Source: an uncultured Bacteroidota bacterium (lineage in GTDB: Bacteria > Bacteroidota > Rhodothermia > Rhodothermales > Salinibacteraceae). Taken from it: 42,767 nucleotides of DNA. Where the stretch lies: contig CAKZLV010000117.1 in NCBI GenBank assembly GCA_937127285.1, positions 1 through 42,767 on the forward strand, read 5' to 3'. Position 1 is the first letter of the stretch; every line of letters begins with the position of its first letter. Shown in pieces: positions 23,802 to 36,784 of the stretch. The position numbers and the translations under genes were made by a program. The notes under the pieces are model-generated. The model was given only the letters and a program-made list of their open reading frames with translations, ran no database searches and was not told the origin of the DNA.

Positions 23802-24068
23802 ATGCCTTCCGTAACGGCTCACCCGACGCCAAATCCGAACAGCCTCAAGTTCACCGCCGAGGCCGCGCCCTTCATCGACGACGGCCTGATCTCCGTCCGC
23901 TCGCCCGCGTCGGCCGGCGAGCACCCGCTCGGAGCACTCATTCGCGTCGACGGCATCTGCGACGTCCTCATCACCCCGGCCTTCGTAACCGTGTCCAAAA
24001 CCGAGTCCGCCTCCTGGGACGACCTCCGCCCCCTGGTAACGTCTCGACTGGAAGCCTACCTGGACTGA
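23802..24068 (+). CDS. Stand-alone Nfu/NifU N-terminal (Nfu_N-type) domain protein
   Basis: Start at ATG 23802: MPSVTAHPTPNPNSLKFTAEAAPF...LGALIRVDGICDVLITPAFVTVSKTESASWDDLRPLVTSRLEAYLD; no CxxC Fe-S domain follows. Confidence 0.85.
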   Translation: MPSVTAHPTPNPNSLKFTAEAAPFIDDGLISVRSPASAGEHPLGALIRVDGICDVLITPAFVTVSKTESASWDDLRPLVTSRLEAYLD

Positions 24069-24410
24069 CGGGTGGAGGGCACCTGCACCGGTTGGTGGTC
24101 TCGCTTCCGGTGGTCTCGCTTCGAACGAATCGGGCGGCGGTCCCTCCCAAAGCGGTCCCTCCCGAAGATTTCCTTTTCGAACCCTGGGTTCCGGCACGTC
24201 TCTTCTCGGAACCGGGCTTCCGACTGCGCCCTGCCCCTCGGCCTCCGCCCCGACACCCGCCCGCTGCCGCCACCGGGCAACCTTTCTCGTGAATTGACCG
24301 CGTACCCGGCCCGGCGCTGCGGCTCGCGCTCAACTTGGACTTATTTTTGATCTCCACCGCTTGTGCGGGTTGATGCGGATCGTGTCTCCGGCGCTCCCCC
24401 TGCAGGTTTT

Positions 24411-24610
24411 ATCTGCGGGCCCCATCTGCGGGCTGCCATCTGCAGGTCGTCGGTTGGCCGTCGGTTGGCCGTCGCTTGCGAGCGGCCGCTTACGAAGCAC
24501 CGGCCGCTTGCGAAGCACCGGCAGGGGCCGCTCCATCCCGGCGGATCCGCGTCGGTTTACACCGGTCGGTGTGCACCGGTGAATTCGCACCGGTGGGTGT
24601 CCCGGTCCGA
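24411..24610. repeat. Cluster of four unrelated short tandem arrays (13/14, 11, 18 and 14 bp units)
   Basis: atctgcgggc(c/t)... (24411-24449), gtcggttggcc x2 plus variant (24449-24481), ggccgctt(a/g)cgaagcacc x2 (24484-24519), and four 14-bp units around caccggt (24555-24610). Confidence 0.85.
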
Positions 24611-24696
24611 TTCCGCAGCCGACCCGACGACGGCCGCGCCCCGCGCCGTTCGCCTGCCCGTTCTCTTTCTCCCCACGGCTCGCCCTTCTCCCCCCT

Positions 24697-26856
24697 ATGT
24701 TCTTCCGCTCCATTCTCGGGAGCTTCCTCGTCCTCCTGGCCCTCCTCACCCTGAATGCGTGCGGGACCAGCCAACCGGCGCAGACGACCTCTCAGGCCAC
24801 GATTCGAGGGACGGTCGTCGACAGCACCACCGGCCGCAGCCTCGACAGTGCTCAGGTTCTGGTGCGCCGCCGGGGCGACACCCTGCAGACCGGCTCCGGC
24901 GGCGGGTTCACGCTGGAGGGGATGCCGCCCGGGCTCTACGTCTTCGACGTGAACGCCTACGGGTATCATCCGCACCGCCACGTCTCCGCCCTGGTCCGAT
25001 CCGGCGGCTCCGACGTGGACCTGAGCGTACCGCTGCTTCCCCAGACGCTGCAGGTCGACTGCGAGAACCGTCAGCAGGGCTATCACCGCACCGTGCAGTC
25101 CTTCGTCGACCAGGACTCGTCGGCCGTCCGGTTTCGGCTGATCGACCTGTTTGCTCAGGACGGCGAGGTGCGCGTGCAACCCATCCTCCGGACGCAGGTG
25201 AGCGCCCCGATCTTTCTGCCCGACAGCCTCGGGCCGCGCAGTCACTACGACGTCGAGCTGGTGGACGAAACCGGCGATCCGCTTCCGTTTCACTACAAGA
25301 ACGAGCGCGTCTCCAACCCCGATCTGCACCGCATCTACCAGCGCGAGGACATCCTCGTCGTCGTCCCACAGCAGGCAACGCGTCTTGCCCCCAAGGTGCT
25401 GCAACTGGAGGAAGAGGTCGCCCCGGGAACCCCCGTCTATGCACGCGTCCGGTATCAGTTTTCCCTCCGGGACACCCTGCGCCCTACGCCGCAAACGGAC
25501 TTCCCCGAGGAGCGCCTCGACTCCTTGCAGGTCGCCCGGTACGACACGCTCCGCGTCGGCGGCTCCCTCATCGCTCCGGATAGCCTCGTCGAACGGCGCG
25601 ATACCACCATCGTCCGGACGGTTGGCCTCGACACCACCGTCACCCGCGACGGCTACCTGCTGTACTCCACCGAGCGCGACACCAATGCCTTTGCCAACGC
25701 CCAGGGCGCTGTCCGCGAACTCTACGTCCCCGACTCCGTCAAGGCCCGGACCCGGCTCGACTCGCTGATCGCTGCCGGTGTGGACACCGTGCGCACCCAG
25801 CCGGAAGCCGAGCCGACTCCGGACCCGGACGCCCGCCGGGCGGCCCGATCTCCCATCGACATCGTGCTGCGGTCGGACCGCCGGGCGCTCGACTCGCTCG
25901 TCGTTGATAATAACCTCGCCCGCGTGCTGGAGTACGGCATTCCGCGTCCCGGCATGTCCCTCGACTCGCTCGAGCTGCTCACGGACAGCTCGCTGGCCGC
26001 GACGCTGTCGTCTCCGCGACTCGAACGCCGGCCCCTGCCGCGAACCGTCCCGCGCCCCGACTCCGTCCTGCGCCGCTATTCCGCCGACTCGCTCACGACC
26101 GTCCTCACCGACCTGGTGCGGGACTCGCTCGTGGTCGACTCGCTGGTTCAGCGCCGCCAGCCGGACGCGCCCTCTCCCGCCCCGGGCGCCGACTCGGTTC
26201 GCGCACCGGGCGATGCGGCAGCCCGCGCCGACTCCCTGGCAGTTCCCTCCCCGACGGAAGACTCCGTCTCGGCCGACACCCCGGCGACCGACCCCCTCGC
26301 AGCCGACACCCTGGCGGCCGACTCGGTGAACCGCCGAGCCCGCGCCGACACGACACAGCCCGAACGCCCCCGTCTCCGATCCGACACGCTCACCGTCGGC
26401 GACCTCGTTCCGGATACCGTATCGACCGACTCGATTCGGGCGTACCTGACCCGCGCCGGCGTCGAAACGGATTCGGTGGTGGTTGACTCGACCATCGGAT
26501 CGTTTCTGGATGACCCACCGGCCGGCACCTACCGCTACGTGCCCGGCTCAAAAACGCGAACCGGAGAGCGCGTCCTGGTGCTCGACCCGGCGTTCACCCG
26601 CGTCCGGGCCCCGGTGGTGCTGGACACCGCCCGGGTTGAGGACCTCCTCACCCTGACTCCGGAGCGGGTCGGGGACCCTCCGGAGCCGCGGATCGAACGG
26701 GTGGTCCAGCAGATCATTCTCGTCCCCACCGGCGGATACCGCACCCGCTACCTCGAGACGTGGAGGGCGGAGCAGCAAAAGAATCTCCGCGACCCGTACT
26801 GCGAGATCTTCCGTCTCCGGTTGCGCAGTTCCTGGCGGTCAACCACCATGCGGTAA
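24697..26856 (+). CDS. Large lipoprotein with carboxypeptidase-regulatory-like N-domain and Asp-Ser/Thr-rich body
   Basis: MFFRSILGSFLVLLALLTLNACG (lipobox), then ATIRGTVVDSTTGRSLDSAQVLVRRRGDTLQTGSGGGFTLEGMPPGLYVFDVNAYGY (CarboxypepD_reg-like); remainder rich in DSL/DTL/DSV. Confidence 0.8.
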   Translation: MFFRSILGSFLVLLALLTLNACGTSQPAQTTSQATIRGTVVDSTTGRSLDSAQVLVRRRGDTLQTGSGGGFTLEGMPPGLYVFDVNAYGYHPHRHVSALVRSGGSDVDLSVPLLPQTLQVDCENRQQGYHRTVQSFVDQDSSAVRFRLIDLFAQDGEVRVQPILRTQVSAPIFLPDSLGPRSHYDVELVDETGDPLPFHYKNERVSNPDLHRIYQREDILVVVPQQATRLAPKVLQLEEEVAPGTPVYARVRYQFSLRDTLRPTPQTDFPEERLDSLQVARYDTLRVGGSLIAPDSLVERRDTTIVRTVGLDTTVTRDGYLLYSTERDTNAFANAQGAVRELYVPDSVKARTRLDSLIAAGVDTVRTQPEAEPTPDPDARRAARSPIDIVLRSDRRALDSLVVDNNLARVLEYGIPRPGMSLDSLELLTDSSLAATLSSPRLERRPLPRTVPRPDSVLRRYSADSLTTVLTDLVRDSLVVDSLVQRRQPDAPSPAPGADSVRAPGDAAARADSLAVPSPTEDSVSADTPATDPLAADTLAADSVNRRARADTTQPERPRLRSDTLTVGDLVPDTVSTDSIRAYLTRAGVETDSVVVDSTIGSFLDDPPAGTYRYVPGSKTRTGERVLVLDPAFTRVRAPVVLDTARVEDLLTLTPERVGDPPEPRIERVVQQIILVPTGGYRTRYLETWRAEQQKNLRDPYCEIFRLRLRSSWRSTTMR

Positions 26857-30092: not shown

Positions 30093-30476
30093 CGTCTCCC
30101 CCGACGAAAGATCGGGAGGGTCTCTCTTGCGAAGGAGACGTTCGGTTTCCACGGACCTGCTTCGATCATTTGCATGCTCAGAAGCAGAGGCAGACCCAAG
30201 TCGTACGTGTCTTCCGCAGACATTCGAGGCGGAAGCCTCTCCCGCCGGCCCGACGGTACAGGTTCTCAAAACGGTGTCGCCCTTGGGTATCGGCACGACC
30301 GTATCGCTACCCCGAAAACAGGGAAATTATTTCCGTTGGCGGCTGTATCCCCGCACGAACGGACGGGGGTGAGCCGCTCTCCGCCCGCAACCGAAACCTC
30401 ATACGCTTCGGCCGGGGCACCCCCTGCCACCCCCCGTTCAATTTTCGATCTTTGCTGGATGGTCCCTCCGTCGCCC

Positions 30477-35716: not shown

Positions 35717-36784
35717 TCACGACTCCTCCGCCTCCGCCTCTTCCTCGTCCATTTCCTCCTCCATCGCCTCGATCTCTTCGTCGGAGAGCATCCCGAGTTC
35801 CTTCCGGATTTCGCGCTTGATCTTCTGGCGCTCCTCGTCGTGCTCGCGGAGCCAGTCCTTCGTCGCCTCGCGTCCCTGGGCAATCGTTTCCTCCCCGTAC
35901 GAATACCACGAGCCCCGCTTCTGCAGGATGTCGGCGTCGGTCCCCAGGTCAATGATTTCTCCGAGGGCCGAAATGCCCTCGCCGTAGATAATGTCGAACT
36001 CCGCCTCTTTAAACGGCGGGGCGACCTTGTTCTTTTTCACCTTTACCCGGGTTCGGTTGCCCACAACGTCCTGCCCGTCCTTCACCGCCCCGATCCGGCG
36101 AATGTCCATTCGCACCGACGAGTAGAACTTGAGGGCGCGGCCGCCGGACGTCGTTTCTGGATTGCCGAACATCACGCCGATCTTCATGCGGATCTGGTTG
36201 ATGAAGATGAGGGCCGTCTTGGTCCGGTTGATCGTGCCGGCGAGCTTGCGGAGCGCCTGGCTCATGAGCCGTGCCTGCAGGCCGACGTGGGTGTCCCCCA
36301 TGTCTCCTTCTAGCTCCGCCTGCGGGACGAGGGCGGCCACCGAGTCGATCGCGATCACGTCGAGCGCGCCGCTGCGCACGAGCGTGTCGCAGATGTTCAG
36401 GGCCTGCTCGCCCGTGTCGGGCTGCGACAGCAGCAGCTCGTCGACGTCAACGCCCAGATCTTCGGCGTAGTTGGGGTCGAACGCGTGCTCGGCGTCGATG
36501 AACGCGGCCGTCCCCCCCTTTTTCTGCGCCTCGGCAATGATGTGCGTGGCCAGGGTCGTCTTGCCCGACGATTCCGGGCCGAAGATTTCGATGATCCGGC
36601 CGCGGGGCACGCCGCCGACGCCCAGGGCGTTGTCGAGCGCCAGCGACCCGGTGGGGATCGCCTCGACGTCTTCGCGGGGCTCGTCCCCCATTTTCATGAT
36701 GGAACCCTTGCCGTGCTCGCGCTGAATCTGCTTCACCGCCAGATCCAACGCTTTCTGTTTCTGTTCGCCGTTCTCGGAGGCCAT
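35717..36784 (-). CDS. recA: Recombinase RecA
   Basis: [43 protein letters not shown]...[45 protein letters not shown]; acidic C-terminal tail. Confidence 0.99.

What the first reader, a model, noticed from the sequence alone, without database searches (positions are those of the whole stretch)
24069..24696. About 630-bp gap packed with several unrelated tandem arrays
Within roughly 200 bp (24411-24610) four arrays with different unit sequences and periods (13/14, 11, 18, 14 bp) follow one another, after two 15-bp duplications further upstream. No ORF with good coding character covers it. This is the densest example of the repeat phenomenon in the window and the best locus for studying its mechanism.
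Basis: seen in the sequence. Interest (0 to 1): 0.6.

Follow-up and report, generated by a model that had tools for sequence, protein, structure and literature searches.

The report
Genus-wide fifteen-base stutter in noncoding DNA
A 628-bp gene-free gap in an uncultured salt-lake bacterium holds six unrelated short tandem repeats; it is an extreme but statistically expected example of a genome-wide habit, shared with one other genus of the family, of duplicating about 15 bases of noncoding DNA at a time.

Summary
The arrays are real: 6 in the 628-bp gap against 0.06 per dinucleotide shuffle. The gap lies between an Nfu_N-domain gene and a predicted lipoprotein gene and holds no recognisable gene or known RNA. 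It is not special in kind. The whole genome (family Salinibacteraceae) is strewn with such arrays: 694 exact tandem duplications of units of at least 12 bp per Mb of intergenic DNA, 435 in genus g6, and 21 in 16 other genomes of the order. Unit length is sharply bounded: 98 of 114 units of 9 bp or more are 13-18 bp. Unit sequences are mostly unrelated, and in genes only multiples of three survive. This gap is the genome sample's most extreme, but 0.62 gaps this extreme are expected by chance. Paralogous copies of a dispersed repeat carry 0, 2, 2, 2 and 3 units of one array at the same site, while relatives carry 0 or 1, so whole units are gained in collinear DNA. Best reading: a lineage-specific duplication process with a length ruler, acting on unconstrained DNA and filtered by selection. 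No locus-specific function is supported. What sets about 15 bp is open.

The parts
23802..24068 (+). upstream gene, Nfu/NifU N-terminal-domain protein
   Evidence: PF08712 E 9.2e-15; found in 34 of 41 genomes searched
24069..24696 (.). intergenic gap, 628 bp, six tandem arrays covering 194 bp
24094..24122 (.). array 1: GGTGGTCTCGCTTCC, 15 bp x1.9
24137..24167 (.). array 2: GCGGTCCCTCCCRAA, 15 bp x2.1
24328..24351 (+). AT-rich island (GCTCAACTTGGACTTATTTTTGAT), possible promoter-proximal block
   Evidence: matches the upstream region of the orthologue in G010 (22 columns, p=0.002) and G004 (p=0.011), 130-132 bp before ATG there against 346 bp here; region picked by eye; whole-gap search not significant
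24400..24446 (.). array 3: CTGCRGG plus 6-7 bp, period 13/14, four cores
   Evidence: TRF core 24411-24443; extension read from sequence
24448..24478 (.). array 4: CGTCGGTTGGC, 11 bp x2.8
24483..24522 (.). array 5: CGGCCGCTTRCGAAGCAC, 18 bp x2.2
24551..24599 (.). array 6: ACCGGT-centred 14-bp unit, about 3 degenerate copies
   Evidence: TRF core 24551-24580; further copy at 24587-24599
24697..26856 (+). downstream gene: predicted lipoprotein (N-terminal signal ending LNAC) with CarboxypepD_reg domain
   Evidence: PF13620 E 1.9e-11; orthologues over most of the length in G024, G017, G004, G010
30093..30403 (.). internal control: copy of a dispersed repeat that lacks the 15-bp array present in paralogous copies

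Best explanation
The gap is ordinary noncoding DNA (end of one gene, promoter region and leader of the next) in a genome whose noncoding DNA continually gains tandem duplications of about 13-18 bp. SHOWN: arrays are genome-wide, lineage-restricted, of bounded unit length, mostly of unrelated sequence, depleted near start codons, frame-filtered in genes, and able to gain whole units in otherwise collinear DNA. INFERRED: a short stretch is copied once more next to itself during replication or repair, by misalignment of a displaced or newly made strand of about 15 nt with little or no homology needed; the second copy then lets ordinary slippage add or remove units; point mutations erode the copies; selection removes hits in genes and near start codons. 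This gap has collected six. The arrays are probably not functional as such, although four of them may have lengthened the lipoprotein gene's leader.
For: Excess over chance: 204 intergenic arrays against 4-10 in shuffles in a 370-kb sample. Lineage restriction: 694 (own), 435 (g6) and 21 (16 other genomes) exact duplications per Mb intergenic. Ruler: units of 9 bp or more number 12 at 9-12 bp, 98 at 13-18 bp, 4 at 19 or more, against about 2 in all in shuffles; unique units average 14.8 bp (sd 1.6, n=65) in own and 16.7 (sd 1.65, n=16) in g6, p=0.0003. Frame filter: all 18 exact coding duplications of 12 bp or more are multiples of 3, 12 of them 15 bp. Array coverage is 4.7% within 50 bp of a start codon against 17% at 150-200 bp. 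Little homology in clean two-copy cases: 25 of 34 have junction extension 0-2 bp; 9 of 34 have 3 or more against 6% expected. Unit gain: paralogous copies of one repeat carry 0, 2, 2, 2 and 3 units of a GCARTTGCTCCCATT-type array at one site; G005, G011, G022, G007 carry none and G003 one. No hairpin signal or GC bias in units.
Against: No mutation was seen happening: there are no reads or isolates, and no second genome of this genus was held among those searched. The 0/2/3-unit comparison is between paralogues. About 40% of exact arrays (51 of 123) belong to dispersed families or 7/8-bp mosaics, so more than one process operates. Excess junction homology argues for partial dependence on homology. 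No genetic cause was identified. Functions such as translation control by the leader were not tested. The assembly is a fragmented MAG (370 contigs, 88% complete).
Confidence: 0.72

Rival explanations
1. The arrays are regulatory: operator-like or iteron-like binding sites or a structured leader that controls the lipoprotein gene.
For: Four arrays lie between a possibly conserved AT-rich block and the start codon; that distance is 346 bp here against about 130 in G004/G010. Array 6 holds palindromic ACCGGT at 14-bp spacing, with a related copy at 24085.
Against: Six unrelated unit sequences; none in the orthologues' upstream regions; the leader's fold is not unusual (z -1.47); no Rfam match; the same kind of array occurs in convergent gaps at 3.1 per kb, where no promoter is expected.
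Confidence: 0.1
2. Footprints of transposition: target-site duplications left after precise loss of an inserted element.
For: A bounded unit length of 13-18 bp with mostly two copies is what long target-site duplications would look like.
Against: In the intergenic sample, exact repeats of 13 bp or more lie 179 times at a distance of 13-18 bp; only 35 lie 100-3000 bp apart, with no preferred element length and many belonging to local repeats, so occupied sites are lacking; copy numbers reach 3-12; units vary by several bp in length.
Confidence: 0.06
3. Fill-in of staggered breaks followed by end joining, as in eukaryotic small tandem duplications.
For: Most clean two-copy cases need 0-2 bp of homology; duplications from breaks with single-stranded ends are known (PMC8355091).
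Against: No Ku in any of the 25 Salinibacteraceae genomes, while the search finds it in B. subtilis and two genomes of the order; in PMC8355091 such duplications largely need Ku80. An end-joining route without Ku is not excluded.
Confidence: 0.12
4. Assembly artefact of a short-read MAG.
For: G000 is fragmented; tandem repeats are known to trouble assemblies.
Against: Other fragmented genomes of the family (G001, 540 contigs; G008, G016, G010) have 0-0.5 arrays per kb; copies have diverged (median 90% match); arrays are mostly shorter than a typical read; coding arrays keep frame.
Confidence: 0.03

Closest known systems
Tandem repeats of archaeal Borg elements (PMC9879509)
   Same: Genome-specific; unit sequence almost always unique to the locus; intergenic and genic; units in genes divisible by three, intergenic units mostly not; partial repeats at the edges; inferred to arise from local sequence.
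   Different: Borg arrays were analysed at 3 or more units and at least 50 nt, are nearly perfect and A-enriched; here units are 13-18 bp, usually 2-3 copies, often diverged, with no GC bias, in a bacterial genome.
Bacterial VNTR / minisatellite loci
   Same: Head-to-tail noncoding units whose number can change.
   Different: VNTRs are usually described as individual loci; here roughly four in ten noncoding gaps carry an array and unit length is confined.
Heptameric repeats of cyanobacteria and Xanthomonas (STRR type; PMC4692102)
   Same: The dispersed subset here with 7/8-bp sub-units (e.g. CCAATGCCCAATG) resembles them.
   Different: Those share one consensus unit; the focal gap's units are unrelated to each other and to the dispersed families.
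Small tandem duplications at DNA breaks in vertebrate cells (PMC8355091)
   Same: Single short duplications, often with little homology.
   Different: There mainly Ku80-dependent NHEJ with CST/Pol alpha; Ku is absent here.

Membership tests
Borg-type locus-unique tandem repeats | unit sequence unique to each locus | tested here: inconclusive
   Of 210 arrays, 66 fall into clusters of two or more and 144 are singletons.
Borg-type locus-unique tandem repeats | units in ORFs divisible by three, intergenic ones mostly not | tested here: met
   18 of 18 exact coding duplications of 12 bp or more are multiples of 3; intergenic peak at 13-17.
Borg-type locus-unique tandem repeats | at least 3 units, essentially perfect | tested here: not met
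   Median 2.6 copies, median 90% match, 59 of 355 perfect.
Borg-type locus-unique tandem repeats | A-enriched units | tested here: not met
   G+C 0.648 in arrays and 0.648 in other intergenic DNA; strand-specific A content not measured.
VNTR / minisatellite | unit number differs at homologous sites | tested here: met
   0, 2, 2, 2, 3 units at one site in paralogous copies in this genome; not tested for the focal gap.
VNTR / minisatellite | unit number differs between strains | not testable with these tools
   No second genome of the genus was held among those searched.
Heptameric STRR | 7-bp unit with shared consensus | tested here: not met
   Focal units are 11, 13/14, 14, 15, 15 and 18 bp and unrelated.
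Target-site duplication footprint | same direct repeats also flank present elements | tested here: not met
   Exact repeats of 13 bp or more cluster at distances 13-18 with no peak at element-like distances.

The most novel reading that the evidence does not exclude
Two genera of Salinibacteraceae carry a specific molecular activity that duplicates noncoding DNA in steps of fixed size (about 15 bp in one genus, about 17 bp in the other), i.e. a mutational process with a built-in ruler not described in bacteria, which has written about a tenth of the intergenic DNA of the genome.
Probability: 0.3. Interest if true: 0.7.

Novelty: new variant of a known kind. Interest (0 to 1): 0.42.

Why it matters
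If the bounded unit length holds up, it gives a mutational signature of one biochemical step, readable in two uncultured genera and lacking in their relatives, Salinibacter among them. The cause could then be sought as a gain or loss of a replication or repair gene. It would also show how noncoding DNA and gene leaders can grow in about 15-bp steps in a bacterium, in parallel with what is reported for Borg elements.

Tried and rejected
Orthologous gap: none, because Nfu and the lipoprotein gene are not adjacent in relatives. Hidden gene: rejected. Known RNA or tRNA: none. Leader structure: not significant. Sigma-70 promoter: none; the one terminator-like match is at chance level. Hairpin-driven units: no difference from shuffles. 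Ku/NHEJ: absent. Loss of the PolA 5' nuclease: rejected, present in own, G011 and G014 and partly matched in G005. Transposon footprint: not supported. Near-duplicate contigs as strain variants: none in the first sample. A first split of arrays into unique and mosaic had a coding error (a unit was compared with itself when lengths were equal); only one search is used. A first alignment of the dispersed repeat had three copies on the wrong strand; one search replaces it. A recA tree could not resolve whether own genus and g6 are sisters. Paper searches for tandem repeats in Salinibacter found nothing relevant.

Full report
What is there. The window is contig C117 of a fragmented metagenome-assembled genome (3.85 Mb, 370 contigs, 88% complete). 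The gap 24069-24696 lies between an Nfu_N-domain gene and a predicted lipoprotein gene with a CarboxypepD_reg domain.

Is the gap special? No. A gene model was trained on 370 kb and later 594 kb of the same genome, and TRF was run with genes and gaps counted apart. Gaps hold 2.1 arrays per kb, genes 0.29; about 10% of intergenic DNA lies in arrays. With the genome's own rate the focal gap is expected to hold 1.46 arrays; six has P=0.0039, and 0.62 gaps this extreme are expected among 370. Another gap, L109:8265-8965, also holds six. Arrays are slightly over-dispersed (chi2/df 1.17, p=0.015).

Is the phenomenon general? No. Exact tandem duplications with units of 12 bp or more occur 694 times per Mb of intergenic DNA here, 435 in genus g6 (G005, G011, G014) and 21 in 16 other genomes pooled. 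By TRF, g6 members have 1.0-2.0 per kb and most others 0-0.5, with Salinibacter-like G007 at 0.3; G006 came out at 0.73 on 20 kb and 0.44 on 70 kb. G031 of another family reaches 0.9-1.2, but with a 7/14/21-bp period, which looks like a heptameric repeat family. Other fragmented MAGs have few, so fragmentation does not explain the arrays.

The ruler. In 150 kb of own intergenic DNA exact duplications of unit 9 bp or more number 12 at 9-12 bp, 98 at 13-18 bp and 4 above; detection by exact match does not favour 13-18 over longer units in any way that would produce a sharp upper edge. After removal of dispersed families and 7/8-bp mosaics (51 of 123), the unique units still average 14.8 bp, sd 1.6; in g6 they average 16.7. 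In genes the same process is visible through the reading frame: 12, 15, 18 and 21 bp only, 15 most often.

Selection. Array coverage is lowest in the 50 bp before start codons (4.7%) and peaks at 150-200 bp (17%); convergent gaps are denser (3.1 per kb) than divergent ones (2.0). This is what a neutral process filtered by selection would give.

Unit gain seen in homologous DNA. A dispersed intergenic repeat at 30093-30403 has five near-full copies in the genome. At one site these carry 0 (window), 2, 2, 2 and 3 units of a 15-bp sequence, GCARTTGCTCCCATT or close to it in three of them and a diverged pair with an 18-bp first unit in C56; copy C36 also shows a further 17-bp insertion that reads as a partial duplication. 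Pieces of the repeat in G005, G011, G022 and G007 have no unit there, and G003 has a single unit-like stretch. So units were most simply gained in this lineage within aligned flanks; the window copy shows the unexpanded or contracted form.

How it may work. In 34 clean two-copy cases 25 have 0-2 bp of extra match at the junction, near what no homology predicts; 9 have 3 or more against about 2 expected (binomial p=0.0002). So homology helps but is mostly not required, and the unit length does not vary with it. I favour a replication or repair intermediate of about 15 nt (a displaced or re-paired strand that is kept rather than removed) as the first step and ordinary slippage afterwards; this is inference. 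Ku-dependent end joining is unlikely. Loss of the PolA 5' nuclease is not the cause. Transposon footprints lack occupied sites.

What the arrays do to this locus. The lipoprotein's orthologues in G004 and G010 have a block similar to 24328-24351 ending 130-132 bp before ATG; here the distance is 346 bp, and the extra 215 bp correspond in size to the stretch 24395-24610 that holds four arrays. The match is short, was picked by eye, and is not significant when the whole gap is searched, so leader growth is a suggestion only. No regulatory role is supported.

Known relatives. The closest description found is the tandem repeats of Borg elements (PMC9879509): locus-unique units, genome-specific, frame-kept in genes. 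Borg repeats are more perfect, have more units and are A-rich; those features were tested or compared and are not met. I file this as a new variant of a known kind, not as a member of the Borg type.

Limits. One genome of the genus, incomplete g6 genomes, no reads, gene calls by a simple codon model of my own, and pooled comparison samples of 10-120 kb per genome.

Noticed in passing
window 30093-30403; L248-L251: Dispersed intergenic repeat of about 310 bp, five near-full copies plus fragments in this genome and pieces in G003, G005, G007, G011, G012, G022; begins TTGACTTCTCCCCCG..CGGGGGATTCTC, which reminds of the palindromic ends of IS200/IS605-type elements (from memory), and has a well-conserved 3' half (CCTCCGCAGACATTAGAGGC...CTCCCGTCAGCCC).
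   Followed up: partly
L028:1-51, L103:2808-2876, L109:8651-8720 and others: A cluster of 39 related arrays built of degenerate 7-8 bp units (GGGAGCGTGGGGGCTT and kin), and smaller families (CCAATGCCCAATG, CCCTCCATCCTCCA, CCCGGTTCCCCGTCTC), similar in style to cyanobacterial STRR repeats; not the type found in the focal gap.
   Followed up: partly
L128-L131 (G031): A genome of another family of the order has intergenic repeats with 7/14/21-bp periodicity, at 0.9-1.2 arrays per kb.
   Followed up: no
window 24697-26856 and 35717-36784: The lipoprotein gene faces recA in convergent order about 1.4-1.7 kb apart in G017 and G024; here the same order is kept with 8.9 kb between them.
   Followed up: no
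L201:6540-7080: A 288-bp near-tandem intergenic repeat containing CATTGATCAATGATCATTG motifs.
   Followed up: no
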